From an uncultured Verrucomicrobia subdivision 3 bacterium (GTDB taxonomy: Bacteria > Verrucomicrobiota > Verrucomicrobiia > Limisphaerales > UBA8199), in the NCBI GenBank assembly GCA_903913865.1, contig CAIWMU010000087.1, forward strand, positions 1 to 44,717: 44,717 nt of DNA, written 5' to 3'. The position numbers and the translations under genes are program-made. How positions within the stretch are numbered: the first letter of the stretch is position 1; every line of letters begins with the position of its first letter. The notes beneath the pieces were generated by a model, which was not told the DNA's origin, ran no database searches, and saw nothing but the letters and a program-made list of their open reading frames with translations. This document shows, piece by piece, positions 22,109 through 44,163 of the stretch.

Positions 22109-22139
22109 TGGACTACGTACCAGATGTGGTGAAATCTGA

Positions 22140-25416: not shown

Positions 25417-25686
25417 ATGAAAACACCCTCGCTGTTCTTTTTGATTTGCACCCTGGCGGTTTGCGGGTGCGGAAAAAAGAGCGGACAACATTCCGGCGAG
25501 GCAACGATGTTTGAGCTGAATCAGGCTTTGTCGATCATGTCCATGGGTGGAAAGCACCCTCCCGCGAACGTCAATGACCTGACGAATTTCCCCTCGCTGC
25601 ATGGAAAATCTCTACCAAAGCCACCTGTGGGCCAGAAGCTGGTAATAGATCCTTCACAGGGTCGGGTCGTGTTTGTGGATCAATAG
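25417..25686 (+). CDS. Small lipoprotein
   Basis: An 89-residue protein with a lipoprotein-like leader (MKTPSLFFLICTLAVCGCGKK; the second Cys, after Gly, fits the lipobox best). The rest is a short soluble segment (NVNDLTNFPSLHGKSLPKPPVGQKLVIDPSQGRVVFVDQ). Similar short proteins accompany pseudopilin genes in this phylum, and the Asp-Leu-Thr-Asn/Pro-rich end resembles the globular tail of pseudopilins. Function is unknown. It lies between the pseudopilin gene and the repeat-protein gene with gaps of 47 and 60 bases, consistent with one transcript. Confidence 0.7.
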   Translation: MKTPSLFFLICTLAVCGCGKKSGQHSGEATMFELNQALSIMSMGGKHPPANVNDLTNFPSLHGKSLPKPPVGQKLVIDPSQGRVVFVDQ

Positions 25687-25746: not shown

Positions 25747-28134
25747 ATGAAAAAAGACAGCAACAGATTGAAAGCGTTAGGCGGCGTCGCGATCGCTGCG
25801 TTAACGATGGCCGTGTCTGCAAAAGCGGATGCCTATTGGGGTGGAGTCTTCGACTCGGACTGGTCGAACCCGGGCAACTGGGGTGGGACCGGCGATCCCG
25901 CCAACGCTGCCGGTGCCACCATCATCAATCCCGGGAACAACCCTTGCATTGTCAGCTCCATTGGAAATAGCACCTCCGGCGATTGTTATATCTCCGTTGG
26001 CGTTGGGCTGAGTGTGGTGACTGGCGGGCACTTGACCATTGGGGCCAATTTCATCACCGGACAATGGGGGAACAGCACGCCTGTGACTGTCACGGGAGAG
26101 CTGACCATCAATGGTTACTTGCTTACAGGAAATGGGGGATTCGATGGGGATGTCAGCATCTCCTCCGGGGGGACGGTGCAGTCTGGCGCGCTTTCCATGA
26201 ACACAGCGGGTGGCGCGAAAATGGACATTTCAACGAACGGCACCTACATAACGGCCATTAGCCAGTTGGGAAACGTCAATTATTGGATTGCCAATAATGC
26301 CATCACTGCCAATGGCAATGTAGCAGGCTGGGCCATCAATGTGGACACCAACTCGATCGCCGACAAACTGAAGCTGACGGCGGTTTACACACCACCCCCG
26401 GCGGTTTCCACCAATTTCGTTTTCGACAACGGGGGAGGGGACAATATGTGGACCGGCACGCTGAATTGGAACCCCGACGGGCAGCCCGGCCTGATCGACA
26501 CCGCCACAGTGGCGGGAGGCGCATATGTGCTCCTCAATTCGGAGATTTCGGGCAACGTCGGCAAATTATCCGTTGGTGCTGTGAACGGTGAAGGTGCCGT
26601 GAACTTCAATCCCGGCTGCAAGGTCTCCTTCCGGGACGTGACCAACTCCCTGATCATCGGGGGGGTGGCCAACAGCGGCATCTATCCCAGTTACTGCATC
26701 TTCAACGGCGGCACCGTGGGCGCGATTGGTGACGTCATTATTGGCGGCAGCGATGGTCGGGCGGATGCCCGTCATTACGGCGGCAGTGTGAACATCGGGG
26801 GTTCCTTGCGTCTCGGTTCGTATCTCTACTCATCTCCAACCTCTCCCACGAACGCATCCCTGCGACTCATAGGCGGCGCGGGCGGTTTTGGATCGGTGGG
26901 CGGCGGCATTGAGATTGGTGACGCAGCAACACTCGCTTATGAATTCAACGGCGGCAGCACCGTGAAGACGCTGGTCACGGGTGGTGCGGTTACCATTTCG
27001 CAGGGTGCCGTTCTTGTGCTCGATGGGACGGGATATGCCGGTTCGTCCGGTGATATAACCCTCCTGCAAGGATCAGCAATCACTGGAACGTTCACGACGG
27101 TGGAATACACGAACTTTCCCAGTGGAATCAGCGCCAGCGTGAGCTACACGGCGACGCGATTGAAACTCTCCCTCGTGGTCAGCCAGCCGGACCTGGGTTT
27201 GACCATCACCAAGCTGGGCGGCGCAACCAATCTGATCACCTGGAACATGGGCAGTCTCATGACGGCTGCCAACATCGCGGGGCCGTGGCAGTTGGACCCG
27301 TGCGCCCGCTCGCCGCTGGTCGTTGTGGATGGTAGCGGCAGGAAGTTCTACAGGGGCGTGTTGCTCGGTGCCCTCTACCGCTACGACAACGAATCGGGAA
27401 ATAATTTGTGGACGACTCCGCTCAACTGGAATCCCGATGGGACGCCCGGTGCGGCGGATGATGTTGTGGTTGCAAACAGTCGCTCGGTGTATCTGACTTC
27501 GGATGCGGGCACCGTGGGGACGGTCCTTGTGGGCGACAGCGGCGGCAACGGAGCACTGAACATCTACAGTTCCATTGAGGTCACGAATCCCTGTCTCTCG
27601 GTGGTCGTCGGCGGCGCGTATGCCTCGCCGAACAACTACGTGAGTTACTACCGCCACCAGAACGGCGGCGTTCTCACCACAGCCGGGGATCTTGTGTTCG
27701 GTCGCAACGGTGGCAAGGTGGACGCGGAATTCGCCGGACCAGGCACACTCGCCGTTGGCGGAACGCTGAGGATTGGTTCCTACCTGTCAGCCGGTCAGTC
27801 CTTCTTTGTGCTGCCCGGCAGCGCGGGAACCATCACGGCAGGCGGCCTCGAGGTTGGCGGCGCAGGGGAACTGGTGTTTAACTTCAACGGCGAGGCCGTC
27901 TTGAAGACCATCACCGTTTCGGGTGGCGTGAACCTGCTTTCCGGCAGCCAGCTCACGATCAAAGGCAACGGCTATTCCAACGGTTCGGGCACCTACGATT
28001 ACACGTTGATCGCGGGCGGATCCCGAACGGGCACATTCACCTCAGTCAACGTGACCGGGTTCCCTGTGGCAGGGACGACGGCCGCAGTCGCCTACTCCGG
28101 AGGAGTTGTAACCCTCCGGGTGGTCGTGCCTTAA
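25747..28134 (+). CDS. Secreted beta-repeat protein with two copies of a 250-residue module
   Basis: A 795-residue exported protein with a signal peptide (MKKDSNRLKALGGVAIAALTMAVSAKA). The chain is Gly/Asn/Thr-rich and probably a right-handed beta-helix related to autotransporter-associated repeats. After an N-terminal part (30-220) come two homologous modules: about 224-477 (FVFDNGGGDNMWTGTLNWNP start) and about 544-795 (YRYDNESGNNLWTTPLNWNP start). Between them (480-540) is a copy of the shared C-terminal-type domain (GPWQL...KFYRGVLL). The same module opens the 1194-residue protein at the other end of the cluster. No catalytic residues or outer-membrane barrel are seen. A surface-bound glycan-binding or scaffold role is inferred. 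Confidence 0.78.
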   Translation: MKKDSNRLKALGGVAIAALTMAVSAKADAYWGGVFDSDWSNPGNWGGTGDPANAAGATIINPGNNPCIVSSIGNSTSGDCYISVGVGLSVVTGGHLTIGANFITGQWGNSTPVTVTGELTINGYLLTGNGGFDGDVSISSGGTVQSGALSMNTAGGAKMDISTNGTYITAISQLGNVNYWIANNAITANGNVAGWAINVDTNSIADKLKLTAVYTPPPAVSTNFVFDNGGGDNMWTGTLNWNPDGQPGLIDTATVAGGAYVLLNSEISGNVGKLSVGAVNGEGAVNFNPGCKVSFRDVTNSLIIGGVANSGIYPSYCIFNGGTVGAIGDVIIGGSDGRADARHYGGSVNIGGSLRLGSYLYSSPTSPTNASLRLIGGAGGFGSVGGGIEIGDAATLAYEFNGGSTVKTLVTGGAVTISQGAVLVLDGTGYAGSSGDITLLQGSAITGTFTTVEYTNFPSGISASVSYTATRLKLSLVVSQPDLGLTITKLGGATNLITWNMGSLMTAANIAGPWQLDPCARSPLVVVDGSGRKFYRGVLLGALYRYDNESGNNLWTTPLNWNPDGTPGAADDVVVANSRSVYLTSDAGTVGTVLVGDSGGNGALNIYSSIEVTNPCLSVVVGGAYASPNNYVSYYRHQNGGVLTTAGDLVFGRNGGKVDAEFAGPGTLAVGGTLRIGSYLSAGQSFFVLPGSAGTITAGGLEVGGAGELVFNFNGEAVLKTITVSGGVNLLSGSQLTIKGNGYSNGSGTYDYTLIAGGSRTGTFTSVNVTGFPVAGTTAAVAYSGGVVTLRVVVP

Positions 28135-28163
28135 TATACAAAGTCCGTCACAAAAAATTCATC

Positions 28164-28195
28164 GTCGGGGCGCGCACTTCGCTGCGCGCCCCGAC
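28164..28195. terminator. Perfect 12-base-pair GC hairpin inside the glycan cluster
   Basis: GTCGGGGCGCGC (28164-28175) pairs perfectly with GCGCGCCCCGAC (28184-28195) around an eight-base loop, 30 bases after the repeat-protein stop. No T tract follows. It may partly attenuate transcription or protect the 3' end of the upstream three-gene message. Confidence 0.5.
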
Positions 28196-28321
28196 CTGGT
28201 GGCAGATTGGAGAATTGAACTGCCGGATCCGGGTTGCTACCCTTCCGGCAGGAACCGGATGCAGCGGACCGCCCTTGTGGTGGTGTGCCGGGGAATCAAC
28301 CAGCAACCGTCGAAGATTCAA

Positions 28322-30106
28322 ATGATCACAAAGCAGTTTCCATCCATCGCAAAGGCTCGCATTTGCCGGGCGCCGGTCATCCGGTTTGTCACCACCCTGA
28401 TTGCGCTGCTCACAGCCGCCAGCTCCTTCGCGTTAGAATCCTCCGGCGTCAAGGCTGCCCCGGGGGGATTCAAGTATTTTGTAGGCATTGTTGGCAATCC
28501 ATCCGTGCCTGACATCAGCTGGAGCGACGAGCAGCTTGAGCAGATCAAGGCCCTGGGGGTGAACATGGTTCAGTTGAGCATCGCGTGGGGTGGAAAGCCG
28601 GCGAACGAGGTTCTGAACCTTGAGGATCTGGACAGGGAGCAGCGGGAGAAGTTTGCTTTCCGCATCCGGCAGGCAAAGAAGCACGGGCTGAAAACCATCG
28701 CCCAGTTTGGGATTCCGAGGATGATCAGGTTTGACCCGGTGCTGCCGGCCTGTGTGCTGGATCCTGAGGTGCAGAAGAAATATCAGGACCTGCTGACCGA
28801 TTTCATGAAATCCTTTCCGGAGGTGGACGATGTGATGGTTTACACCTTTGACCAGCAAGCCTGGCTCTGCAGTGAGTTCGGGCCGTGTCCACGGTGCAGC
28901 GGGGTTCCGCTGGATGACCGGGTTCCGGGCTTTTTGAATCTGCTGAACGAGACGATGCAGAAGTGCCGCCCGAACACGCGGTTGTGGTGGAAGCCCTGGG
29001 AGTTGTCCAAGGGACAGATCGTTGCCATTCTCGACAAGGTGAACCCCTCCCACTTCGGCCTGGTTTTGAATCCATCGACCAGCAACGAGGTTTATCCGTT
29101 CGACGACCGGTCGTTCAAAGCCGATCTTGGGGTGAAACGATTCGTGCAACTGTCCAGGGAGCGCAACATCCCGGTTCTGGGGGAATTCGATCACACGCTC
29201 TACAAACCGCTTTACATGATGGAGGATTTCTTCCCACGCCTCATCTATGAGCAGATGAAGGGGTGGAAGGAGATGGAGGGGGTGGTGGGGGTGAAGGAAT
29301 ACTACGGGTTTGCGCCGTCCACATTCTCGGTGAATGCCGCGATGTTGAAGGCGTGGATGAATGCTCCGAACGCACCGCTTTCCAAGCTGCTCGACACAAT
29401 CGCCGCGCCCTATGGATCCAAGGCTGCCCCGCTCATGATTCAAGCCTGGGAGTTTGTCACCCAGCATGTGCAGGCCTACCCGTGGGATGTCACTTATCTG
29501 ATCGGGCCCCTGGGTCTCGACCGCCATTGGTCCGGAACCCACGATTGGGATCCCGTAAACATTCCAAACGCCACATGGGACACACCGATCTGGAAGGCAA
29601 ACCGGCGTGCGAATTTCATGCTGACCCAGGACAAGACAGCACATCCGTGGCTCTTCGAGGACACGGGTTTGCGTCTTGAGGACTCCGCAGCCCTGGGATT
29701 CAAGGCGGTCGGGTTTTATGATCAGGCCATCGCGGCGGGCGGTCCCCGGGTTGCGGAGATCCGGACACAGAGGGAGATTGTGTGGAAGACAGCCCGCTCC
29801 CTTCGTGCGAAGTCCCTGCATTTCCTTGAAACACTCGCTGCACAAGATGCGCGCATGGCGCAGAGTGATGAAAAGCAGTTCAGCATCGTCACGAAGCGGC
29901 TGGAGGGGTTGCTCAGGAAGGATGTCGAAAATCAGGCTGGAAACGCGGCTGTGGCGCAAAAACTTGTCGAATTCCAACGGGATCCGAAGGTATGGATCAC
30001 AGAGAACCTGAACCCCGCCCGGGGTGGAACCGAATTCAAGAACCTTCCGGGGCATGAAACCCGGGCGACGGTTGACTGGAGCAAGTGGGTTCCAAAGCGG
30101 GATTGA
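28322..30106 (+). CDS. Secreted TIM-barrel glycosidase-like protein
   Basis: A 594-residue protein from ATG 28322. A signal sequence (VIRFVTTLIALLTAASSFA) follows a basic start; earlier in-frame codons add 41 residues without use. Strand-helix alternation suggests a (beta/alpha)8 barrel: LGVNMVQLSIAWGG, GLKTIAQFGIPR, DDVMVYTFDQQAWLCSEFGPCPRCSG, TRLWWKPWE, IPVLGEFDH, VVGVKEYYGF. The CPRC element after an acidic strand end recalls DUF4838/GH20- or GH67-like proteins, but I cannot place it in a numbered family. Candidate acids are Asp and Glu in YTFDQQ, KPWE, LGEFD and VKEYYG. The C-terminal 120 residues are helical. It sits in the ten-gene cluster 61 bases before the GH43-like lipoprotein gene. 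Confidence 0.65.
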   Translation: MITKQFPSIAKARICRAPVIRFVTTLIALLTAASSFALESSGVKAAPGGFKYFVGIVGNPSVPDISWSDEQLEQIKALGVNMVQLSIAWGGKPANEVLNLEDLDREQREKFAFRIRQAKKHGLKTIAQFGIPRMIRFDPVLPACVLDPEVQKKYQDLLTDFMKSFPEVDDVMVYTFDQQAWLCSEFGPCPRCSGVPLDDRVPGFLNLLNETMQKCRPNTRLWWKPWELSKGQIVAILDKVNPSHFGLVLNPSTSNEVYPFDDRSFKADLGVKRFVQLSRERNIPVLGEFDHTLYKPLYMMEDFFPRLIYEQMKGWKEMEGVVGVKEYYGFAPSTFSVNAAMLKAWMNAPNAPLSKLLDTIAAPYGSKAAPLMIQAWEFVTQHVQAYPWDVTYLIGPLGLDRHWSGTHDWDPVNIPNATWDTPIWKANRRANFMLTQDKTAHPWLFEDTGLRLEDSAALGFKAVGFYDQAIAAGGPRVAEIRTQREIVWKTARSLRAKSLHFLETLAAQDARMAQSDEKQFSIVTKRLEGLLRKDVENQAGNAAVAQKLVEFQRDPKVWITENLNPARGGTEFKNLPGHETRATVDWSKWVPKRD

Positions 30107-30167
30107 AGGCCTGGACCGGGCGGAAGGGTGGAATTGTCTATTGAAGACTAAGGCTGTTTTTTACACG

Positions 30168-31256
30168 ATGAACTCACGCTCATTCAAGGCAGTCTCCGCC
30201 TTTGTCATCCTGCTTGCCGTCAACCTTGTGGCAACCGGGTGCAGGAGTGGCCAGCCCGGTCCCAAGGTTGAGGAGAAGGTCTTGATGATCCCACGCGTGG
30301 CCAGGCCCTGGAGCGAGGCCCGGCGCCTGGTGGGGGACGGGCATCCGTTATACAGCGATTTTTCGCTGATCAAGGACAAGCGGGATCGGTGGCACTGCAT
30401 CGGCACGTTTGGGGAGAGCCCCGCCACTTATGGCAGCGGGTATGAGTTGGCGGATGGATATGCCCTATTCCACGCTGTCGGGGACTCTCTGGAGACCCCC
30501 ATGACCCTCCGTGACAAGATCCCGTATCAGATCGCATCTCCACAGGCGTTCATGTGGGCGCCAGGCACCATCTGGAACCGGGACCGAACGACGGCTTTTC
30601 TCTTCTATTTCCACTACCTTGGATCGTCCGAATTCAAGGAAAACTGTGTCCGGCTGCTGTCATCCAGTTCAGCCGATCTTGGGGAGTGGCGTCCCTATGG
30701 CGGGTCGCAGCTGGAGGAGGGGAACATGGCATTCCGCGAGCGGGATGACCGTGACTTTTGCGTGTTCCGGGACGAAAAACTGGGCAAATACCTCATTTAC
30801 TACGCCTGTGCAGGAACCTACCCGGGACTTCCCGGTCTTAACACAATCGTTCGTGTCCGCACATCTGGCGATCTTCTCCACTGGTCCGAGCCGGTGACCG
30901 TCATGGGGCCTCCCCCGGGTGGATACCAATGTGCCGAATCCCCCCTGGTGATTTACCGCAACGGCTACTACTACCTTTGGGTCAGCGGGATAGATTATAG
31001 CCGTGTCTCACTCTACATCTCGGAAGATCCCTTCAATTTCGGTGACCCCGCCGGGAACCGGATCGAGGAACAGCCGGGGCACGCACCGGAAATTATCTCC
31101 GACAAAGGGCGGGATTACATGGCCTGCTCCATGGTTTCATCAGTGCCGAGCGCAACGCCGGGGGCCAACGACCTTCATGGCATTCTGATTCAACCTGTGC
31201 GCTGGGACAAACCAGACCCCGGCATGGAAGCGCGGGTGACCCGCAGGCGGCAATGA
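30168..31256 (+). CDS. Lipoprotein with GH43/GH32-like five-bladed propeller
   Basis: A 362-residue protein from ATG 30168. The leader ends in a lipobox (LLAVNLVATGCRSG), so it should be membrane-anchored outside the cytoplasm. The body fits a five-bladed GH43/GH32-type glycosidase fold. PLYSDFSLIKDKRDRWHCIGTF carries the likely catalytic Asp. Repeated sheets follow (FLFYFHYLG, KYLIYYACAG, SPLVIYRNGYYYLWVSG), and GHAPEIISDKG supplies a candidate catalytic Glu. GH43 enzymes commonly act on arabinans or xylans, which agrees with the GH127 gene downstream, but the substrate is an inference. The gaps to its neighbours are 61 and about 54 bases. Confidence 0.68.
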   Translation: MNSRSFKAVSAFVILLAVNLVATGCRSGQPGPKVEEKVLMIPRVARPWSEARRLVGDGHPLYSDFSLIKDKRDRWHCIGTFGESPATYGSGYELADGYALFHAVGDSLETPMTLRDKIPYQIASPQAFMWAPGTIWNRDRTTAFLFYFHYLGSSEFKENCVRLLSSSSADLGEWRPYGGSQLEEGNMAFRERDDRDFCVFRDEKLGKYLIYYACAGTYPGLPGLNTIVRVRTSGDLLHWSEPVTVMGPPPGGYQCAESPLVIYRNGYYYLWVSGIDYSRVSLYISEDPFNFGDPAGNRIEEQPGHAPEIISDKGRDYMACSMVSSVPSATPGANDLHGILIQPVRWDKPDPGMEARVTRRRQ

Positions 31257-31310
31257 CATTCGCCCGCCCCCGCAAGAAAACTTCAGATGAAAGTCCCGGA
31301 AAGAATCCAA

Positions 31311-32711: not shown

Positions 32712-32718
32712 GCCACCC

Positions 32719-35700: not shown

Positions 35701-36060
35701 GGCATTGATCAACGAGGCACGGCGTTCAAGGACATCGTGATCAAGCCATATATCGGGTCAGGTTTAACCTGGGCCCGGGCCTCCTATGCCAGCATTCACG
35801 GAACCATCGCGGTGCGGTGGGAAAAGAGGGGCAAGGATCTGGTCATGGACGTCACAATCCCCGCGAACACCTCGGCAACCGTGATCCTTCCCGGCAAGGG
35901 TAATGCAACGTTTCATGAGAGTGGGAAGGTGCTCTGGTCCAAGGGGGAACAGCGGAAGAGAATGCAGGGAATCTCCTGGGTCAGGCCGACTCTGCACGGG
36001 GTGGAAGTCGCGGTCGGATCCGGCACCTACAGGTTTCGGATAGAAGGAAGTGGCTTGTGA
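32719..36060 (+). CDS. GH78 alpha-L-rhamnosidase, secreted, with altered acid motif
   Basis: An 1113-residue protein from ATG 32719 with a signal peptide (cleavage after AVAA, near residue 29). Domain order: Ig-like rhamnosidase domain (about 35-130), an inserted beta-sandwich (about 180-300), the Bac_rhamnosid_N lectin-like domain (about 340-520), a concanavalin-like domain (530-620), the (alpha/alpha)6 catalytic domain (620-970) and a C-terminal beta domain. The general acid Glu665 (ADRAERLGW) and the base-side Glu957 (SSWERWDGW) are present. The family consensus DCPxRDERLGWTGD reads here as G-C-A-D-R-A-E-R-L-G-W-C-A-K, so two normally conserved aspartates are Gly659 and Lys672. It could be an active enzyme with shifted specificity. 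It lies tightly between the GH29 gene and the (alpha/alpha)6 glycosidase gene. Confidence 0.9.
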   Translation: MTTMRTNWIGKLAGLLALLTTGPTLAVAAPKLETAQLRCEYLQNPLGIEVTNPRLSWILKSEVRGQKQTAYQVLVASSESLLKQNHGDLWDSGKVLSGDSVLVAYQGAHLTSGQECFWKVRSWDVEGKPASWSRTALWTMGLLNPEEWQAARWIGEEKRAPGYNSEGYQWIWYPEGSPNLVAPSGTRFFRRKFTVPSGKQITAANFNLTCDNGFTLFVNGIRAGQGTNWTQPPKIDIRSQLIPGENTLAIAATNVDSAAGLTGKLTVQFGDSTSLVIWLDGAWKALNQEITNWTSGTFDDHAWPAALVLGSMGMAPWGGVRWDEGARVWVLPPSPYLRKEFKVAKPIRRATIYATALGAYELHINGARMGEDYFNPGWQELRKRVYYHTYDVTKMLRQGDNAIGGILSDGWYSGYIWAGRDTYGNVPKLRVQLRVEYADGTRETVATDETWKLSYGPIREGDVQQGETYDARLEMPGWDRVGFDDSRWQSVAVSVVTNLVLGVSPSPPVRKQQEIKPVKLTQPRPGVYVFDLGQNIAGWARIKVAGKRGTKIVLRISGMLNPDGTIYTDYLREARAVDTYYLKGDGAEVWEPSTTYHGFQYVEVTGLPGRPELGDLAGIECNSTLATTGMFECSDARVNRLYSNALWTMRDNLVDVPTGCADRAERLGWCAKTPLVKTWTYALDMGGFLSKWMVDLVDSQSLSANESGAAFMQVAPFWGDIESPGWSDDGIAVPYGLYKAYGDTGIIRKHYDAMARYIGYLQSKLVDNLRPANLRIAADTNFVGYGDWLAITQNREGNADIFNTLLNGASVKMMAEMAEAIGRTADAEAYRSVFKNMQTAFDKAYVSSQGVVRDDSQMEYALALYYGFIPTNKVSMAVSNLVNDILNKSHQQTFADALGKNPMIPPGHLTTGFHGSRALLPVLSQYGRNDVAYGLLLTDTYPAWLYPVKLGATSSWERWDGWTPDKGFQDARMNSFSMPDLMASVSEWLFCHVGGIDQRGTAFKDIVIKPYIGSGLTWARASYASIHGTIAVRWEKRGKDLVMDVTIPANTSATVILPGKGNATFHESGKVLWSKGEQRKRMQGISWVRPTLHGVEVAVGSGTYRFRIEGSGL

Positions 36061-36160
36061 CACCCGCCCAGGCACCTCTCCAGGGTCTTGTGGGGGCGTT
36101 TTCATGCGAGAATGGCATTCCCTATTCTCCTGTCGTCCATCTGGGGAAACTTCAAGGTCG

Positions 36161-36168
36161 AGGGGAGG
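36161..36168 (+). promoter_or_regulatory. Strong ribosome binding site fixing the start of the (alpha/alpha)6 glycosidase
   Basis: AGGGGAGG lies seven bases before ATG 36176. It decides against the in-frame start at 36050, which would overlap the GH78 gene. Strong Shine-Dalgarno sites are uncommon in this window. Confidence 0.7.
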
Positions 36169-36175
36169 TCGCCTG

Positions 36176-38485
36176 ATGAATCGGAACCTGGGTTGTGCAA
36201 TGGCCATCGCAGTGGGGTTGCTCACTGGATTCGGGGCAATGGCCGACACCATCACCGGACCATGGAGGAGGACCCTTCAAGAGGCCGCTTTTGTGAAGGA
36301 GGGGATGGATCGTTTCCGCAATTCTCAGTATGAATACGAATGCCTGGGGCTTGGGGGCACGGTGCTGCGGGTCGGTTCCCACGGGTTTGGCCTGCCGGGG
36401 GCTGTGGGTATCAATACCAACGGATTTCTGAGGCACGAGCCCTACCTTTCATATCAATACTGGTGGGACGAAGAGGCTCACCGGCATCTTCCTTATGAAC
36501 TAACCGGTGGTTATGGTCCCAATCTGGAACCCGGCGAGGTGTCGAGCTTTCGACATCATCTGGATATTCTCACCGGTTTGCTGACCATCGATCTGGGTCT
36601 GCGTTGCGCCGGGGTTCAGGGTGCGACGAATGTGTTTCGGAGCCGCAGGGAGATGTTCGTCACCCCGGAAGGGGTTCTGGTCATTCGCGTCACGGATGCA
36701 TCCGACGCACCCATGCCATTTCAGGTGCAGGTGGGGACAAACCGGAAGGTCCGGGTGTATCTGAACCAGGGTTACTATGGGAAGGAGCATGATGGGTGGA
36801 GCGGAACAGGCATTGCGAAGCCGGGCGGCATGGTCGTCGTTGCGAGTCGGCCACGGTCCTGCTTGGCCACGCTGGCGGTAGCGTGCGAGGGGGATCGTTC
36901 CTCGACTGACTCGAGCGCTTTTCGATCGGGTGCAACGCGGTCGGGAGATCGGATGACCTTTTACATTGCCCCCGGTTCATCCTACGAGAGTGCCGATCCG
37001 GTTGCGGCGGCATGGAAAAAGGTGGAGTTGATCCGCTCCCGGGGGTATGAGGCTGCGCGTCGGGAGACTGAAAAATGGTGGAAGGGGTTCCATGGGAGGT
37101 CTGAAGTCCGCCTGCCGGAGCGCGATCTGGCGCGATGGTTTGCACGTTCGACCTATTATCTCGGGGTCTATTTTGGCAACACGGACGTTCCGCCGGGATG
37201 CAACGGCACCAGTGTCGAGAGTTTTGCCGGGGCAATTTGTCCTGAATACGACATGGTTTTGAATCAAATGGCGCTCCTTTACGGAAATCATTTTGATGAA
37301 GCCCGACGGGTCGCCGGCTGGCTGGGTAGGGCGTTGCCCCGGGCGGAGCGCTACGCTCTGGAGGGTCTGAGCCTGCACAAGATTTCAACGAAATACAGTG
37401 GCGGGGCAAAGTTCGGCCCCCTCATGGGTTATGATGGAACGATCCTCATTCCGCCCACTCAAGGGGAGGGGGTTTGGGCCCACGAGGACTTTTCCGGGAA
37501 TAACGCGGCACTGATGGCGCTGAATTACATCGACTGGAGCGGGGATACCCGTAAGGAGAAACCGGCACAGCGGCTCCTGAAGGGGACCACCCAGGTATCA
37601 GTGGAGGATCTGGAGTGGAGGTCCGACTTTGGTGCCTATCTGAACAAGTCCATGCCTGCCACGGTTCAGCAGGCTGGAACACTTTTTGGCCTGAGGGAAT
37701 CGGTTCGTCGCGGCGTTGCGGACAAGGGGTGGGAGGAGATCATGGGTAAAGTTCTTCTGCCCACGGCGGATTACAAGGGTGGGAGAGTCCTGACTGTGGG
37801 CCCCGGTGCGACCCCGGTTCAGCATTCAGGCGATGCCACGTGGTTGTGCCCGGTATGGTGGTATGGGGTGATGGCGGAGGATGATCCGATTGTCCGGCGG
37901 AGTTATGAACTGTTTCGCACGTCGAAGACTGGCAACTATGTTTTCAACAATGGTTGGATGGGGGTGATCGCGTCGAAGTTGCGCGATGGCGACGAGGCCC
38001 GGCGCTGGGCCATGAGGTTTGTTCAGCCCGGAGTCACCCTGTTCGACGACACTTGTTTCGGTGAGTTGGTCAGTGACTTTGAGGATTTCAAGAAGACTCC
38101 CGAGGTGGCAGCACACGCCTCGTTGGTTTGCAACATCACCCAGATGCTGTTGGACCCGGATGACGAAAAATCGATCACGGTCTTTGGGGCCATTCCCCTT
38201 GAGTGGGAGCAGAAGGGCGTCGCCTTCAAGAATCTTGCCGCAAGGGGAAGTCTCCTCGTTTCGGGTGAATTCACACCCCGGAGAGTCCGTGTGGTGCTGG
38301 AGAATCGTTCAGATCGGAATTGCACCAGAATGCTGCGCGTGCGCCTCCCTATGGGCCTGACCAGTCCGCGATCATCCGGGAGGGGACTGCGCATTGAGGG
38401 AGCGTGGGCTGTCATCCCCGCCTTGCAACTTCCAGCCAAACGAAAAGTGGATTTTACATTGGAACCGCAGCCAAACCACAGATAA
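36176..38485 (+). CDS. Secreted (alpha/alpha)6-barrel glycosidase, GH95/GH65-like
   Basis: A 769-residue protein with signal MNRNLGCAMAIAVGLLTGFGAMA. The N-terminal 270 residues form a beta-supersandwich (LGGTVLRVG, SSFRHHLDILTGLLTIDLGL, REMFVTPEGVLVIRV). A helical barrel follows (ARWFARSTYYLGVYFG, YDMVLNQMALLYGNHFDEARRVAGWLG, WAHEDFSGNNAALMALNYI), with a C-terminal beta domain. This architecture is shared by GH95, GH65 and related families. Motifs that would fix the family are not clear, so a-L-fucosidase/galactosidase (GH95) is only the best guess. Candidate acids are in CPEYD, HEDFSGN and DDTCFGEL. A 115-base gap separates it from the GH78 gene. Confidence 0.72.
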   Translation: MNRNLGCAMAIAVGLLTGFGAMADTITGPWRRTLQEAAFVKEGMDRFRNSQYEYECLGLGGTVLRVGSHGFGLPGAVGINTNGFLRHEPYLSYQYWWDEEAHRHLPYELTGGYGPNLEPGEVSSFRHHLDILTGLLTIDLGLRCAGVQGATNVFRSRREMFVTPEGVLVIRVTDASDAPMPFQVQVGTNRKVRVYLNQGYYGKEHDGWSGTGIAKPGGMVVVASRPRSCLATLAVACEGDRSSTDSSAFRSGATRSGDRMTFYIAPGSSYESADPVAAAWKKVELIRSRGYEAARRETEKWWKGFHGRSEVRLPERDLARWFARSTYYLGVYFGNTDVPPGCNGTSVESFAGAICPEYDMVLNQMALLYGNHFDEARRVAGWLGRALPRAERYALEGLSLHKISTKYSGGAKFGPLMGYDGTILIPPTQGEGVWAHEDFSGNNAALMALNYIDWSGDTRKEKPAQRLLKGTTQVSVEDLEWRSDFGAYLNKSMPATVQQAGTLFGLRESVRRGVADKGWEEIMGKVLLPTADYKGGRVLTVGPGATPVQHSGDATWLCPVWWYGVMAEDDPIVRRSYELFRTSKTGNYVFNNGWMGVIASKLRDGDEARRWAMRFVQPGVTLFDDTCFGELVSDFEDFKKTPEVAAHASLVCNITQMLLDPDDEKSITVFGAIPLEWEQKGVAFKNLAARGSLLVSGEFTPRRVRVVLENRSDRNCTRMLRVRLPMGLTSPRSSGRGLRIEGAWAVIPALQLPAKRKVDFTLEPQPNHR

Positions 38486-38499
38486 CTGCCATTAACCAT

Positions 38500-40569
38500 A
38501 TGATTGAGACAAGAATGCCGGAAATCAGCCGCCCGGGCATGCTCCATGGGAACAAACTTGGATCGCGGCAGATCCATCTCCTTGCAGCACTGGGGATGGT
38601 TGTCGCGTTGACATCCGGCCGTCCTGCAGCATCCGCCGAACACTCCTCCCCAGCCTCGGGGCGGGCAACGGCAGTTCAAGCATCCCTCGCGCCCGTCGTT
38701 CCTGATCAGTGCACGCCCCTTGAGATTGGCCGGGTGAGGCTTTCAGGGCTGCTCGGGAAACATGTCGATTTTCTACCCAACCGGCTCCTGAAAGGTCAAC
38801 GCGAGGCTTACGCTGCAGTGTTTGAAAACCCTGGCGACACAAACAGCTGGCGGGCGGAGCACATCGGGAAGTGGCTCGAAACAGCGTGCAACGCGATGGC
38901 TTATTCGCATGATGCACGGCTGGGGCGCGCAGTGAATGGTGTGGTGGACCGGCTCATCCAGCTGCAACAGCCTGACGGGTGGCTCGGCTCCTACGCGCCC
39001 GGATATCGATTCCACAAGTATGACTGGAAGGGGAATCAGGGAAAAAAGTATGAGCCGTTCTGGGACGGTCCATTCTACGATGTCTGGTGCCACTATCTCA
39101 CCATGGGGGGACTGATCAGGTGCTACGAAACCACCGGGAACCTGCAGGCACTGGACGCAGCGAAAAAGATCGCCGACCTGCTCATCGCCACCTTTGGTCC
39201 TGGCAGGCAGGATTTGATGCTCATCAATCACGACCATGGTTTCGGGCCGGGTGTGGGGGTGCTCCCTGTTTCAAAATTGTATCTTCTTACCGGGGATTCG
39301 CGGTATCGTGATTTCGCAAAGTACATCACCACCCAATACGGCCGGACCGGGAAGGTTCCGATCACGATGACCGGAATTCAGGATGATCGTTACCCGTTCC
39401 CCGATTGGGCGCAGATCAAACATTGCGAGTTTGAACTTTGTCTTGCGGGGATGTGCCAGCTTTACCGGGGAACAGGGGAACCTCAATTTTTTGCAACGGC
39501 CCGCAACATCTACGAAGGCTATTTCGCGCCGTTGAATGACACCATGTCACTGCACGGGTTCAAGACTCCCCCGCCGGGGATGCGGGTGCCCGATACCTAT
39601 TATGGGTTTCTGGAGACGTGTGACATCGTGCCGATGCTGCGGTGGTATGTTGAGATGGCGCGCATCACGGGTGACTCGAAATATTTGGACGCTGTGGAGT
39701 GGAATCTCTACAACTCACTGCTCTCGCGGGATCTTCCGGATGGGAGGGTGTGGCCGGGAGTGGATGAGCCGAAGAGCGACTTTTTCCATTGCTGCTACAG
39801 CATGCTGGCGGTCGGCATTTCTTATGTTCCGAACTGGGCCTATTTTACCACCTCGAAAGGGATCATCGTGAATCTTTACGAATCCTCGACCGCGTCAATC
39901 CGGGTTGCGGGTCAGAGCGTTAAGATCCGGCAAACCACTGAATATCCGCTTGATGGAACCGTGAAGTTGAGTGTTGAACCTGAGAAGACAGCGGTGTTTG
40001 ACCTCCTGCTGCGAATTCCAAAGTGGTGCAGGGGTGCCAGCGTTTCGGTCAACGGCAGTGCCGTTGAAGGGGTGGTGCCGGGGGAATTTCTCAGGATCAG
40101 CCGCGAGTGGAAGCGGTCAAACAGGGTCACCCTGAGTTTTGACATGGGAACCCGTGCGGTTCGTCGCAGTTTTGAAAAAAATGGAGGGGTTCCGGAGGTC
40201 ACATTGGAGAGGGGTCCGCTCCTTCTGGCACTTACCACGAAACTCAATCCGGGAATCGAATTGGAGAGCGTCATCCCAACCGTCGGGTCCGGGGGATTTG
40301 TGGAGTGTCGTGCGATGTTGAAGCCCAAGGCTGTCAAAGCGAATACCATGCGCTTCATGGTCGGTGCCACAATGGGAGGGGCGGGCATCGGAAATGACCC
40401 TGCGGGCCAGGCTTCGATTATCATGACCCCCTACGCCTTTAGCGGCGTAAGTGACAAGCCTGTGCCCAAACCCAGGGAGGGCGTGTTCAACGTCTATTCA
40501 GAGGATGGGGTTGGAAAATCGGTGAAAGTGGAGTTCCCACTGTCGCGGACCGGCAACGCGATCAGGTGA
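38500..40569 (+). CDS. GH127 beta-L-arabinofuranosidase (DUF1680), secreted
   Basis: A 689-residue protein from ATG 38500, 14 bases after the previous stop; ATG 38515 is an alternative. The signal is IHLLAALGMVVALTSGRPAASA after a polar start. The helical barrel and zinc site of GH127 are complete: GFLETCDIVPML gives Glu372 and Cys374, and FFHCCYSML gives Cys431 and Cys432, matching the Glu-Cys-Cys-Cys set of the bifidobacterial enzyme, where one Cys of the CC pair is the nucleophile. Further hallmarks are DGWLGSY, WCHYLTMGGLIRCYETTG and LLLRIPKWCRGASVSVNG. C-terminal beta domains follow from about residue 460. The enzyme removes beta-L-arabinofuranose. Some DUF1680 relatives act on other sugars, so the exact substrate is inferred. 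Confidence 0.88.
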   Translation: MIETRMPEISRPGMLHGNKLGSRQIHLLAALGMVVALTSGRPAASAEHSSPASGRATAVQASLAPVVPDQCTPLEIGRVRLSGLLGKHVDFLPNRLLKGQREAYAAVFENPGDTNSWRAEHIGKWLETACNAMAYSHDARLGRAVNGVVDRLIQLQQPDGWLGSYAPGYRFHKYDWKGNQGKKYEPFWDGPFYDVWCHYLTMGGLIRCYETTGNLQALDAAKKIADLLIATFGPGRQDLMLINHDHGFGPGVGVLPVSKLYLLTGDSRYRDFAKYITTQYGRTGKVPITMTGIQDDRYPFPDWAQIKHCEFELCLAGMCQLYRGTGEPQFFATARNIYEGYFAPLNDTMSLHGFKTPPPGMRVPDTYYGFLETCDIVPMLRWYVEMARITGDSKYLDAVEWNLYNSLLSRDLPDGRVWPGVDEPKSDFFHCCYSMLAVGISYVPNWAYFTTSKGIIVNLYESSTASIRVAGQSVKIRQTTEYPLDGTVKLSVEPEKTAVFDLLLRIPKWCRGASVSVNGSAVEGVVPGEFLRISREWKRSNRVTLSFDMGTRAVRRSFEKNGGVPEVTLERGPLLLALTTKLNPGIELESVIPTVGSGGFVECRAMLKPKAVKANTMRFMVGATMGGAGIGNDPAGQASIIMTPYAFSGVSDKPVPKPREGVFNVYSEDGVGKSVKVEFPLSRTGNAIR

Positions 40570-40578
40570 CCCCTCACG

Positions 40579-43500
40579 ATGAAGGTGAAAATAGAATCGC
40601 GACCTTGGCTCTCCGACAACCTGATCGGATCAAGGATTTGTGGATTGCTGATGGCAATTCTTGTGGCCCTGGCTTTTCCCGGGGTATCCGCCCGGGCCGT
40701 TGAAAGGACATTTGACAATCAGTCAGGGAACGGACTCTGGCTGACTCCCGCGAATTGGAGTCCGGACGGGTTGCCGGGACAGTTTGATCCGGTGCGGATA
40801 GAGGGGGGGATGTCTGTGGTCGTTGGTGGAAATGCCGGCTGGGTTTATTCCGGCACCGTTGGCGGGAGCAACGGGCCGGGCGTGCTCACCATCAATCCGG
40901 GTGGAACCGCCTACGGGGTCTCATTCCGTGATCCGGCGTGTTCACTGATCATCGGCGGGACAGCCACTGCCAGTGCGGGGGCGAGCGGCTACAACCACAT
41001 CAGCGGCACCATGGACACCGTCGGCGACTTCATCATTGGCGGGAGTGGGGGGCTGGCTGTCGCAAAGTTCCAGGCAGGGAACATCTGGGTGGGTGGGACT
41101 TTGCGGCTGGGCTCGTATCTATATCCCTCGAATACCACACCGTCCCGTGCAGTTCTCAGGCTGATTGGTGGCAGTGGTGGATTCACACACATCGGCGCTC
41201 TTGAAATCGGGCGGGCGGGCACTCTTGCCTATGAGTTTGCAGGCGGGGGTGCCATCAAGCCCATGCTCGTCACAAGCAACATAGCCCTTTTGCCTGGGGC
41301 ATCACTCCTGGTCGATGGCACGGGCTATACAGGAGGGGTGGCGATGTTCACCCTGATGCAGGGGAGTTCGCTCACCGGAGCGTTCAGCTCGGTGGGCTTT
41401 ACAAACTTCCCCGCATCGGCAGCCCCCAGCGTGGTTCATGCAAACGGGAGGGTCCTCCTGCTGGTGGGGCAGAGCATGAATCCGGACACTGTCCCGGCGG
41501 GACTGCGACTTGTCACTCCCGCCAGTTACAGCTTTGGCTGTGCTGCGGGAACTGGCGGTTCAGTGTGGTTTGGCGAGTTCGGATCCCAGCAACTTAGGAA
41601 GTGGGCTAAGAACGGTCAGGTGGAGGTGGTCAAAAGCGGGATGGCTGGGATCTTCACACTGACCACGGACAGGAGCAGTAACCTGTTTGTCGGTCTTGAA
41701 CTCGGAGACCAGAACAACCCCGGCAGGATTCTGCGGATCATGCCGGATGGAAGCGAAAGTTGCGTCGTGTCGAACATCACCCGACCGAGGCAGTTGACCA
41801 CCGATCGGGCTGGCAACCTCTACTTCGCGACCGAGTCCCCGCCCCGAATCTCCCGTTGGAACCGGACCTCAGGTGCGATTGATATTCTCGGCAGGGACAA
41901 CATCGCGGTGAATCCCGAGGGGGTGGCTGTTGCGGAGGATGGCACGGTCTATTTCAGCAGCTATGGAAGCCCCGAGGCGGGTGTGGCGGGAACACTTCAA
42001 CGGATCTCCACGAACGGCACGATCACGACCCTCGTGTCAGATTTTGCGATTGGCCGGGCACGCGGCATCGTGCTGGATGAGGCACATGGCTGCCTCTACC
42101 TTTGCAGCGAGGCGGACATGGAGGACCACGGGAACTCAGGGTTGCTGATTCGGTTTCAGATTTCCAGCGGCAGTTGGACGAGGGTGGTGCAGGGACTCGA
42201 TTACCCCCAGTTTCCCTGTCTTGGGGGGGATGGGCGGATTTACTTTTCCCTGGCCCGGGAAGATTGGCTTGTGGCATATGATCCGGCAGCTGTGACTGTT
42301 GAGGAGACATGGCCCGGGATGAGCAATGTGGGGTCAGCGGTGGGTGGAGGCACGTGGGGCCAGGGCAGGTCAGGGAGCCGGCTGAAGATCAATGTCGGGG
42401 GAGGTCTCATGTTCGATGGCAACGTCCAGGCTGCGGCGTCCGGCGGAACGGTGCATGGCTGGCTGAGTATCCCTGCGAGTCAGTTGACCCTGGTCACGAA
42501 TCAAATCATGGGATGGAACGGGCGCATCTGGCAGCCAAACCCGTTCAGTGGCATCTTCGAATTGCCAGACATCACCTATGAGGCGGACTCGGGATCCTGT
42601 TTGATTGCTGCCGTTGCGCGGCGAGGGCATGGAGGTGTCCGCTGGCCCATGACGTTCCCGGGAACCATCAATGAAACTCCTGCAGCAGGATTCAGCGAGG
42701 CACCCGCCAGCCTGCTGGTTTACTTTTCCTGGAGCACGAATGACCGTCCGGCGACTCTGCTATCGCCCCCTTATCGTGAGGCTGGTGGCGGGATGACCAT
42801 TCTCAAGGGGGGTGGTCCCGGATGGATTTACAACGACAGTTTGTGGTCTCCCGCAGGACAGACCTGGTTGAACGGCGGGAACTATCACCCACCCGATCCT
42901 TCTGCCTGGGCCGAGCTGGATTTGGGTGCCTACTGTGGAAAATCCAAATACATTTATGCGGGTTGGCACGTGAACGGCCCTTTTCGGCCCCACGCCACCC
43001 GCTATGTCATTTATGACTCCATTGCCGACAGGATGCAGGCTGTCCTGGATCAGACCAAACACGCCGACGGAATAAATCACGGCAACGACACGTTTTCGGG
43101 TTGGCGCCTGCTCGGTGGCGGAAAGATCAATATCACCCCCAGCACCCGGCTCTGGATTTCCGTCGATGCATCTGTTGCGGCCACTGAATACCTGCAAAGC
43201 GACGCGGTGCTGCTTTCGGACCACCCGATCGTGGATGACATCGGGATGGGGGCAACTGGGAATTTCGAGTTCAACACGCCGTTGTCCGTGGCGAGTTCCG
43301 GGCCAACCGGGGTGGGTCACCACTGGGGCATGCAGGGACTAGGGGCACAATACACGACCACAACGAATCGCTTTGTGGAAATTCGTCTTGATGCGGCCGC
43401 CTTTCCGGATGCGTTGCCGGGCTATTACAACTTGGAGGTTTCGTGGGTTTACACCGGCAGCGATGGGGTGAATGCCAGCAGTGCCCGCTATTCGCTGAAT

Positions 43501-44163
43501 GGGGCACAACTACCGGACAGCATCAATCAAAACCGGTCGGCAACAAACCAGAGCGGGTCCTTCGTTGCGGGAAACTCGATCGGCTCGTGGTCCGGATTTT
43601 ACCGGCTCAGCGAGCCTTGTTATTTTTCCGGGACGAACCCCATTTCTGTCAGGTTGAGCTATCCACGGGACATCCACACCGGCAGGCTCGTTGTGGACAT
43701 GGTTCGGTTCGTGCCGCTGGGGAACAGCGATGATTCCGATGCCGACGGGCTTCCCGATGGGTGGATGATGGACAATTTCGGACATCGCACAGCCAGGCTT
43801 GATGACCAGTCGAGCTCAGGCGACTCTCCGGCCGGTGATGGGGTTCCCAATCTCGTGAAGTATGCCCTCGGCCTTAACGCCATGATCCATGGCACGAGGG
43901 ATCGACTGACATCGGGAACCCTTACAGGCGCGCAGCCACTGTTCCTGTCGCTCACCTACACCCGCCCTGAGCCACCACCGGAAGGGTTGATGTATACGGT
44001 CGAACTGTCTTCCTCGCTATTCCCTGCGGTTTGGAGAACAAACGAAACGAGCGTTGTGGGTAATACTGTGAGCAACGGATTAAGGACCATCATCACCCGC
44101 GACATCCAGCCTGTAGGGACCGCCCCGCAGCGCTATATCCGCTTCAAAGTATCGCGGCCATGA
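40579..44163 (+). CDS. Secreted 1194-residue protein: beta-repeat module, propeller, golvesin-like domain
   Basis: The start ATG 40579 is nine bases after GH127. A signal segment (GLLMAILVALAFPGVSARA) ends near residue 40. Residues 43-299 repeat the module found twice in the 795-residue protein (FDNQSGNGLWLTPANWSPDG, LRLIGGSGGF, GTLAYEF). A six-bladed NHL/SMP-30-like propeller follows (about 308-570: GIFTLTTDRSSNLFVG, QLTTDRAGNLYFATE, PEGVAVAEDGTVYFSS). The middle (570-890) is beta-rich with no name. About 898-1050 resembles a golvesin-type C-terminal domain. DSDADGLPDGWMMDNFG with a GDGVPNLVKYALG repeat (1052-1090) is a calcium-binding-type linker common in this phylum, and the shared C-terminal domain ends IRFKVSRP. 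It is the last gene of the cluster. A surface binding role is inferred. Confidence 0.75.
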   Translation: MKVKIESRPWLSDNLIGSRICGLLMAILVALAFPGVSARAVERTFDNQSGNGLWLTPANWSPDGLPGQFDPVRIEGGMSVVVGGNAGWVYSGTVGGSNGPGVLTINPGGTAYGVSFRDPACSLIIGGTATASAGASGYNHISGTMDTVGDFIIGGSGGLAVAKFQAGNIWVGGTLRLGSYLYPSNTTPSRAVLRLIGGSGGFTHIGALEIGRAGTLAYEFAGGGAIKPMLVTSNIALLPGASLLVDGTGYTGGVAMFTLMQGSSLTGAFSSVGFTNFPASAAPSVVHANGRVLLLVGQSMNPDTVPAGLRLVTPASYSFGCAAGTGGSVWFGEFGSQQLRKWAKNGQVEVVKSGMAGIFTLTTDRSSNLFVGLELGDQNNPGRILRIMPDGSESCVVSNITRPRQLTTDRAGNLYFATESPPRISRWNRTSGAIDILGRDNIAVNPEGVAVAEDGTVYFSSYGSPEAGVAGTLQRISTNGTITTLVSDFAIGRARGIVLDEAHGCLYLCSEADMEDHGNSGLLIRFQISSGSWTRVVQGLDYPQFPCLGGDGRIYFSLAREDWLVAYDPAAVTVEETWPGMSNVGSAVGGGTWGQGRSGSRLKINVGGGLMFDGNVQAAASGGTVHGWLSIPASQLTLVTNQIMGWNGRIWQPNPFSGIFELPDITYEADSGSCLIAAVARRGHGGVRWPMTFPGTINETPAAGFSEAPASLLVYFSWSTNDRPATLLSPPYREAGGGMTILKGGGPGWIYNDSLWSPAGQTWLNGGNYHPPDPSAWAELDLGAYCGKSKYIYAGWHVNGPFRPHATRYVIYDSIADRMQAVLDQTKHADGINHGNDTFSGWRLLGGGKINITPSTRLWISVDASVAATEYLQSDAVLLSDHPIVDDIGMGATGNFEFNTPLSVASSGPTGVGHHWGMQGLGAQYTTTTNRFVEIRLDAAAFPDALPGYYNLEVSWVYTGSDGVNASSARYSLNGAQLPDSINQNRSATNQSGSFVAGNSIGSWSGFYRLSEPCYFSGTNPISVRLSYPRDIHTGRLVVDMVRFVPLGNSDDSDADGLPDGWMMDNFGHRTARLDDQSSSGDSPAGDGVPNLVKYALGLNAMIHGTRDRLTSGTLTGAQPLFLSLTYTRPEPPPEGLMYTVELSSSLFPAVWRTNETSVVGNTVSNGLRTIITRDIQPVGTAPQRYIRFKVSRP

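What the first reader, a model, noticed from the sequence alone, without database searches (positions are those of the whole stretch)
25747..44163. A 250-residue module repeated at both ends of the cluster
The 795-residue protein carries two copies (coding 26416-27178 and 27376-28131), and the 1194-residue protein carries one (40705-41475). All begin with F/Y-D-N-x-x-G-x-x-x-x-W followed by NW-x-PDG-x-PG, share an I/V-x-GG...GGTLRLGSYL-type core, and end with a G-x-GY...TGTF/GAF-type stretch. LRLIGG-x-GGF and TLAYEF are nearly identical in two copies. Bracketing the enzymes suggests partner surface proteins for the same glycan, and the module may be an undescribed binding domain.
Basis: seen in the sequence. 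Interest (0 to 1): 0.6.

Follow-up and report, generated by a model that had tools for sequence, protein, structure and literature searches.

The report
Swappable beta-helix modules in sugar-degradation cluster
A verrucomicrobial sugar-degrading gene cluster carries a repeated, previously unclassified protein module that looks like the end of an autotransporter without its membrane anchor, and that in one relative is fused to a sugar-cutting enzyme, so it may hold enzymes or sugar chains outside the cell.

Summary
The three ~255-residue copies are real: 37-45% identical end to end, E 4e-40 to 1e-63. They form a narrow family of their own: a profile of the three copies finds full-length relatives (289-360 bits) in one of 57 other genomes; over 320 order genomes strong matches (222-413 bits) occur in three, and the next score is 32 bits. 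Nothing in Pfam, NCBIfam or PDB sequences matches the module usefully. The model (pLDDT 82.5) is a beta-helix that aligns end to end with the C-terminal part of autotransporter passengers, autochaperone region included (Z 14.7-16), but without a barrel.

The setting is a polysaccharide-degradation locus (GH43-like, GH29, GH78, GH127) with regulator, pseudopilin and small lipoprotein. Related loci swap modules: one fuses it to a GH43-like enzyme, others use different solenoid modules. Best reading: secreted, exchangeable display or binding modules. Glycan binding is inferred. 'Bracketing' is not conserved. The fold is generic; the family, its tandem barrel-less form and the enzyme fusion are new to me.

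The parts
23490..24392 (-). AraC-type regulator, divergent from the cluster
   Evidence: Pfam HTH_18, AraC_binding; homologs by reading beside the solenoid genes in L028, L079 and L097
24512..25369 (+). PulG/GspG-like pseudopilin (open frame from 24377; likely start 24512, by reading)
   Evidence: Pfam N_methyl; NCBIfam prepilin N-terminal domain TIGR02532; homologs by reading in L028, L029, L030, L080; coordinates
25417..25686 (+). small conserved lipoprotein, 89 aa, lipobox-like end of the signal (by reading)
   Evidence: read in the gap before P0001; homologs of 88-89 aa in the corresponding gaps of G053 C4 (L027/L028), L029, L030 and L080; coordinates
25747..28134 (+). 795-aa protein P0001: signal peptide (by reading), type B module, two copies of the 255-aa module
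   Evidence: same B-A-A order in L027 and L030
25831..26400 (+). type B solenoid-like module (~190 aa)
   Evidence: not resolved in the structure model (pLDDT under 50)
26413..27177 (+). module copy 1
   Evidence: structure model m9c6b1f4bd251
27178..27372 (+). linker between copies
   Evidence: low confidence in the model
27373..28131 (+). module copy 2, ends the protein
28322..30106 (+). secreted enzyme-like protein without a Pfam, NCBIfam or PDB sequence match; used as marker of the locus (open frame from 28199)
30168..31256 (+). GH43-like protein with a lipoprotein-like signal (open frame from 30024; start by reading)
   Evidence: Pfam PF04616, 37.9 bits; homolog of the enzyme part of the L029 fusion, 63% identity
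31287..32711 (+). GH29 alpha-L-fucosidase family
   Evidence: Pfam PF01120
32671..36060 (+). GH78 alpha-L-rhamnosidase family
   Evidence: Pfam Bac_rhamnosid domains
36050..38485 (+). 811-aa protein without a Pfam, NCBIfam or PDB sequence match; homologs by reading in related loci
38404..40569 (+). GH127 beta-L-arabinofuranosidase family
   Evidence: Pfam PF07944, PF20736
40579..44163 (+). 1194-aa protein P0002: one module copy, a Vgb/NHL-like propeller, unassigned C-terminal part
   Evidence: 68% identical over 1050 aa to a G125 protein
40702..41475 (+). module copy 3
41506..41994 (+). stretch matched by the Vgb_lyase propeller profile
   Evidence: E 7.7e-8, 31.9 bits, below Pfam's cut-off of 50

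Best explanation
The module is a compact beta-helix, shaped like the C-terminal end of an autotransporter passenger with its autochaperone-like cap, but with no outer-membrane barrel. It is exported by a Sec-type signal peptide and then probably crosses the outer membrane with the help of the type II-like pseudopilin encoded just upstream. Outside the cell it serves as an exchangeable accessory module of one polysaccharide-degradation locus. It is strung in tandem (type B, A, A in P0001) or placed in front of an effector domain (propeller in P0002, GH43-like enzyme in the G053 fusion). Its likely job is to hold the glycan or the enzymes at the cell surface or in the matrix, the task that surface glycan-binding proteins have in Bacteroidota loci (recalled). 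Shown: homology, the predicted fold, conservation, locus association, module swapping, one enzyme fusion. Inferred: the secretion route, surface location, glycan contact.
For: Family of its own: the three-row window profile finds G053's three copies at 289-360 bits, and other genomes give 31 bits or less. The eight-row profile gives nine matches of 222-413 bits in 3 of 320 order genomes, next best 31.7 bits; eight of those nine are rows of the profile or the same record as one, and at most 8 candidates a genome were scored. Fold: pLDDT 82.5, pTM 0.85; VIA aligns residues 1-255 to passenger C-termini, EspC Z 16.0 (3.2 A, 204 aligned), IcsA Z 15.6 (4.0 A, 208), pertactin Z 14.8, EspP Z 14.7; the IcsA autochaperone fragment 3ml3 matches residues 106-255, Z 9.8, 2.8 A, 129 aligned. 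The two-copy protein is kept in three genomes of three families; dN and dS (NG86) against L030 are 0.11 and 0.84 for copy 1, 0.12 and 0.98 for copy 2. Locus association: module A in 3 and type B in 5 of 320 genomes, all within the 7 genomes whose marker enzyme is 75-83% identical to the window's, the window's genome included. Fusion B-B-A-GH43 in one frame of 1067 aa; its enzyme part is 63% identical to the window's separate GH43-like protein. Module swap in front of the propeller: type C, C in L027. Type B alone with PEP-CTERM beside AraC in G011 (Pfam) and G255 (by reading). In another verrucomicrobiote a pulG-like pseudopilin lies in an alginate gene cluster and a pseudopilin is among the genes over-expressed on alginate (PMC13274419, passages).
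Against: No binding data, and no match to a carbohydrate-binding family in Pfam or NCBIfam. Of the 48 invariant positions 22 are glycine; an exposed aromatic platform was not shown. Foldseek alone gave no match under E 1e-3 (best 3.7e-3). Two genomes hold the marker enzyme with neither module found (G046, G009), so the enzyme does not need them. P0001 and P0002 have no PEP-CTERM match, and I found no other anchor. In profile comparisons the border between distant relatives and generic solenoids is gradual (58.0 against 53.3).
Confidence: 0.5

Rival explanations
1. The module is only a rigid spacer or adhesin-like wall element, with no glycan specificity; it lifts attached domains away from the cell or builds matrix.
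For: 22 of 48 invariant residues are glycine; the best folds are autotransporter passengers and adhesins, with tapirin and yeast Awp domains among the rows; different solenoid modules stand at comparable places in related loci.
Against: Among 320 order genomes, type B and module A are confined to genomes with this enzyme locus; a general spacer would be expected more widely.
Confidence: 0.25
2. The module is a catalytic beta-helix, such as a polysaccharide lyase or epimerase.
For: PL3 pectate lyases and phage tailspikes appear among the fold matches at Z about 10. D107, R133, E167 and K185 are invariant in all eight copies, and by reading R133 and E167 sit at equivalent places of successive GxLxIG-like rungs.
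Against: Autotransporter passengers score higher (best ten Z 13.5-16.0). R133 and E167 are not kept in the distant relatives L032, L034 and L035 or, by reading, L083. No enzyme family matches by sequence.
Confidence: 0.1
3. The module is mainly an export and folding device: its autochaperone-like cap drives outer-membrane passage of the attached domain.
For: Alignment to the autochaperone region; in several autotransporters that region is required for secretion and folding (PMC5767081, abstract and passages); adjacent pseudopilin.
Against: In P0001 the modules are nearly the whole mature protein, apart from type B and a linker, with no evident cargo. The GH43-like homolog in the window has a lipoprotein-like signal and no module.
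Confidence: 0.12

Closest known systems
Autotransporter passenger C-terminus with autochaperone (IcsA, EspP, EspC, pertactin)
   Same: Predicted beta-helix aligned over residues 1-255 with the passenger's C-terminal end, autochaperone region included.
   Different: No barrel match in either protein and none in the own genome, which is 95% complete (PF03797); identity in the best structural alignments only 11-17%; the module repeats in tandem and precedes other domains.
PATR and PEP-CTERM solenoid proteins of Verrucomicrobiota
   Same: Shared N-terminal cap W...NWxPxGxPg.
   Different: Those matches score 20-32 bits and are mostly partial, many in long repeat proteins; P0001 has no PATR or PEP-CTERM match.
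Relatives in front of sulfatases (L032, L034, L035)
   Same: Profile comparison with their alignment 97.8%, E 9.7e-13, 165 columns aligned, cap and C-terminal motifs; sulfatase domain follows (Pfam for L034 and L035; L032 by reading).
   Different: About 60 residues shorter in L032 and L034; a three-row profile of them reaches the window only at the cap, 30.8 bits, and L034 alone aligned only at the cap.
SusD-like and surface glycan-binding proteins of Bacteroidota loci (recalled)
   Same: Proposed role only: accessory surface proteins coded beside glycoside hydrolases.
   Different: No SusD or TonB-receptor match among the cluster proteins scanned; predicted fold differs (SusD fold recalled).

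Membership tests
Autotransporter (type Va secretion) | beta-helical passenger | tested here: met
   model and VIA matches, Z 14.7-16.0 for the best four; predicted, not solved
Autotransporter (type Va secretion) | C-terminal outer-membrane beta-barrel in the same protein | tested here: not met
   P0001 ends with module copy 2; no Autotransporter match in P0001 or P0002; 0 PF03797 matches in the own genome at E 1e-3
Autochaperone domain type 1 | structural match to the ~110-135-residue cap at the passenger's C-terminus | tested here: inconclusive
   IcsA fragment 3ml3 aligned to residues 106-255, Z 9.8, 2.8 A, 129 aligned; no Pfam sequence match of the module; chaperone function untested
PATR (PF12951) | Pfam match | tested here: not met
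   0 families at E 1 for P0001 and no PATR for P0002; PATR is found in another window protein, 4380-11045
PEP-CTERM surface proteins | C-terminal PEP-CTERM signal | tested here: not met
   no match in P0001 or P0002; present in the type-B-only protein of G011; 17 matches in the own genome
Carbohydrate-binding module | sequence match to a known family | tested here: not met
   no match of the module in Pfam or NCBIfam; CAZy/dbCAN was not available
Carbohydrate-binding module | fusion to a carbohydrate-active catalytic domain | tested here: met
   1067-aa B-B-A-GH43 protein in G053; one protein in one genome; the Pfam GH43 match there is 27.9 bits, under the cut-off of 32.2
Carbohydrate-binding module | binds glycan | not testable with these tools
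   needs purified protein
Beta-helix polysaccharide lyase | catalytic residues of a known family | tested here: inconclusive
   no sequence match; coordinates of the model were not available for mapping residues

The most novel reading that the evidence does not exclude
Verrucomicrobiota have detached the C-terminal, self-folding end of autotransporter passengers from its membrane barrel and turned it into interchangeable display cassettes. Each such polysaccharide locus pairs the cassettes with its own pseudopilin and small lipoprotein, and mixes them with propellers or enzymes. Together they would form a secretion-and-capture system that stands in for SusD-type glycan-binding proteins.
Probability: 0.3. 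Interest if true: 0.7.

Novelty: new variant of a known kind. Interest (0 to 1): 0.45.

Why it matters
How Verrucomicrobiota hold and attack complex polysaccharides outside the cell is, in my judgement, poorly known. This locus offers a recurring set (pseudopilin, small lipoprotein, solenoid protein, enzyme) and a natural fusion of the module to an enzyme, so the role of such solenoid proteins can be tested directly. The module and two conserved enzyme-like proteins have no match in Pfam or NCBIfam.

Tried and rejected
Generic autotransporter similarity as the whole story: rejected. Generic hits are weak and mostly partial (16 of 58 genomes at E 1e-3, of which only the window's genome and G053 strong; 21 of 320 at E 1e-5, of which three strong). 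In profile comparisons eight generic solenoid stretches scored 40.6-53.3, two stretches of the window's own PATR protein 21.5 and 19.0, and the sulfatase and G491 relatives 58.0-77.3; shuffled copies reached 24.3 at most. The border is therefore gradual, with L031 (52.2) and L010 (53.3) close to L035 (58.0). One further stretch (L011) gave a one-column alignment, probably cut in the wrong frame; I dropped it.

Module types as one family: profile comparison joins B and C (99.5%, E 2.3e-22) but not A with B (36.7%) or A with C (11.5%).

Other weak matches in the own genome: P0001 as query also hit C37 (27.4 bits, residues 412-536) and C97 (22.7 bits, residues 483-575), in good part the linker; the module profile did not list them.

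Viral contigs: 0 relatives from 52 and 77 pattern matches. The BFVD fold search gave one row near E 1e-3, an autotransporter-like phage protein at TM 0.23, and nothing convincing. Sulfatase-type relatives look rare: 2 of 387 phylum genomes at E 1e-6, one of them the window itself (at most 7 candidates a genome scored).

Horizontal transfer: RpoB identities among G000, G053 and G125 are 85-88% and the marker enzyme's are 80-86%. This is not decisive and I do not claim it. No tree was built.

Promoter and terminator scan found no excess over shuffles. Full-length P0001 folded poorly (pLDDT 56.5; residues 1-234 under 50), so type B has no tested fold.

Papers: searches for pseudopilin or PulG with Verrucomicrobia loci, DUF1559/PEP-CTERM/autotransporter, freshwater Verrucomicrobia, beta-helix passengers, glycan-binding and Limisphaerales listed nothing whose title or shown start of abstract describes this module. 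I saw search listings, and found-term passages of PMC5615132, PMC7356697, PMC13274419, PMC5767081 and PMC4960237; the term search in PMC8857213 found nothing. No paper was read whole.
Full report
OBSERVATION. The 795-aa protein P0001 (25747-28134) and the 1194-aa protein P0002 (40579-44163) are intact open frames. They carry three copies of a module of about 255 residues at 26413-27177, 27373-28131 and 40702-41475. Copies 2 and 3 are 41% and 45% identical to copy 1 over the whole length. BLASTP E-values between copies are 4e-40 to 1e-63, and 3000 composition-shuffled sequences gave at most 3.1 bits (9.3 for a single domain) against 129-189 bits for the real copies. A different module (type B, 25831-26400) precedes the two copies in P0001.

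A SEPARATE FAMILY. No Pfam or NCBIfam profile matches the module at E 1 (P0002's matches lie outside it), and no PDB sequence matches usefully (the single profile hit, a malate dehydrogenase at E 0.018, is taken as chance). In the own genome only the three copies match the profile strongly; one more stretch matches at the N-terminal cap with 20.5 bits. A profile of the three window copies found full-length copies in one of 57 other genomes, G053, at 289-360 bits; the rest gave 31 bits or less. A profile of eight copies over 320 genomes of the order gives nine matches of 222-413 bits in three genomes (the window's G000, G053 and G125), and the next score is 31.7 bits. Eight of these nine are rows of the profile or the same record as one, so the gap, not the high scores, is the evidence; at most 8 candidates per genome were scored. 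The three genomes belong to three families. In 387 phylum genomes only G000 and G053 match strongly; G491 has 58.7 bits and G429 38.3. The one close hit in the named genome collection, L030 (an uncultured Verrucomicrobia MAG, 80% identity), has the coordinates of the G125 match and is taken as the same record, so I count it once.

FOLD. AlphaFold2 gives a confident all-beta solenoid for the module alone (pLDDT 82.5, pTM 0.85, eight sequences; residues 7-18 and 140-143 are weak). VIA-align matches residues 1-255 to the C-terminal end of autotransporter passengers: EspC 761-1000 (Z 16.0, 3.2 A, 204 aligned), IcsA 501-738 (Z 15.6, 4.0 A, 208), pertactin 299-535 (Z 14.8), EspP 726-995 (Z 14.7). 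The IcsA autochaperone fragment matches residues 106-255 (Z 9.8, 2.8 A, 129 aligned). Foldseek alone is weak (best E 3.7e-3, the autotransporter Ssp). Neither protein has an autotransporter-barrel match, and the barrel family has no match in the genome. Among autotransporters the autochaperone is described as tied to beta-helical passengers (PMC5767081, abstract and passages). That study looked at autotransporters only; a barrel-less tandem version is unusual if the structural match is meaningful.

THE LOCUS. Between the two proteins lie a GH43-like protein, GH29, GH78 and GH127 families, and two proteins with no family or PDB match. Upstream lie an AraC regulator, a PulG/GspG-like pseudopilin and an 89-aa lipoprotein-like protein; homologs of 88-89 aa are present in each of the five gaps that I read, the window's included. 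A pulG-like pseudopilin in a verrucomicrobial alginate cluster is reported in PMC13274419 (passages).

MODULE SWAPPING. In G053 (L027) the P0001 ortholog has the same B-A-A order, but the propeller protein there carries two type C modules. A second G053 locus (L029) holds a B-C-propeller protein (by reading) and a 1067-aa B-B-A-GH43 fusion; the fusion's enzyme part is 63% identical to the window's separate GH43-like protein, though its Pfam match is under the cut-off. G125 has the P0001 ortholog (L030) and a P0002-like protein, 68% identical, whose module is incomplete near the contig's end. G011 (L079) has a B-C-propeller protein, and G255 (L080) a propeller protein with two C-like modules, the first incomplete. 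In both, a type-B-only protein with a PEP-CTERM end lies beside AraC (G011 by Pfam; G255 by reading). The own genome has 17 PEP-CTERM matches and an exosortase.

CO-OCCURRENCE. The marker enzyme at 28322-30103 has matches in 10 of 320 order genomes. Seven are close (75-83% identical to the window's, the window's genome included); three are distant (33-41%: G078, G121, G305) and left out of the count. Module A is in 3 and type B in 5 of the 320 genomes, all within those 7 (hypergeometric 6.5e-6 and 7.7e-10). Genomes are not independent, the genes are neighbours, and capped numbers of candidates were scored (8 for module A, 10 for type B and 4 for the enzyme per genome). G046 and G009 have the enzyme and neither module. 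Enzyme copies beside B-A-A proteins (G000, G125, G053 first locus) are 80-86% identical to each other, and those of G011, G255 and the second G053 locus 85-88%; but cross-group values run from 75% to 82%, so the two groups overlap.

SELECTION. NG86 dN and dS between the window and L030 are 0.11 and 0.84 for copy 1, and 0.12 and 0.98 for copy 2, which points to purifying selection on both. Copies 1 and 2 keep their own orthologs (75-80% and 71-79% identical) while differing from each other (about 40%), so the duplication predates the split of these loci.

MECHANISM. Best reading (0.5): secreted accessory beta-helix modules that display or bind, strung together or placed before effector domains, and exported with the pseudopilin's help. 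The fusion, the locus confinement and the swapping support an accessory role. The secretion route, the surface location and glycan contact are inference. Rivals are a plain spacer (0.25), an export device (0.12) and a catalytic beta-helix (0.1). The invariant D107, R133, E167 and K185, two of them on successive rungs by reading, are candidates for a site, but I could not map them on coordinates.

RELATION TO KNOWN KINDS. It is built like the end of an autotransporter but is not one: the barrel test failed. It shares a cap with PATR and PEP-CTERM solenoid proteins, with a gradual border in profile scores. Distant relatives stand before sulfatases in an Akkermansia-labelled MAG (L032), a Verrucomicrobiia MAG (L034) and a Planctomycetota MAG (L035), and one lies in a 1126-aa LamG protein of G491.

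Noticed in passing
28322-30106: Secreted enzyme-like protein with no Pfam, NCBIfam or PDB sequence match, 75-83% identical in six other order genomes; possible undescribed glycoside hydrolase family.
   Followed up: partly
36050-38485: 811-aa protein with no Pfam, NCBIfam or PDB sequence match, with homologs by reading in L027, L029 and L030; another candidate enzyme family.
   Followed up: partly
25417-25686: Small 89-aa lipoprotein-like protein conserved in five of five gaps read, between pseudopilin and solenoid protein or enzyme; function unknown.
   Followed up: partly
4380-11045 (minus): 2221-aa protein with metalloprotease-like, cadherin, PA14 and PATR matches: a large adhesin-like protein with a solenoid cap.
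   Followed up: no
L079 1350-2153 and L097: Type-B-only solenoid proteins with PEP-CTERM ends beside the AraC regulator in G011 and G255.
   Followed up: partly
L029 3873-7537: Two further distant paralogs (33% and 36%) of the marker enzyme lie next to each other in the second G053 locus.
   Followed up: no
20228-23201 (minus): A GH20-like beta-hexosaminidase and a uroporphyrinogen-decarboxylase-like protein (named by recall from the sequence) lie just upstream of the cluster.
   Followed up: no
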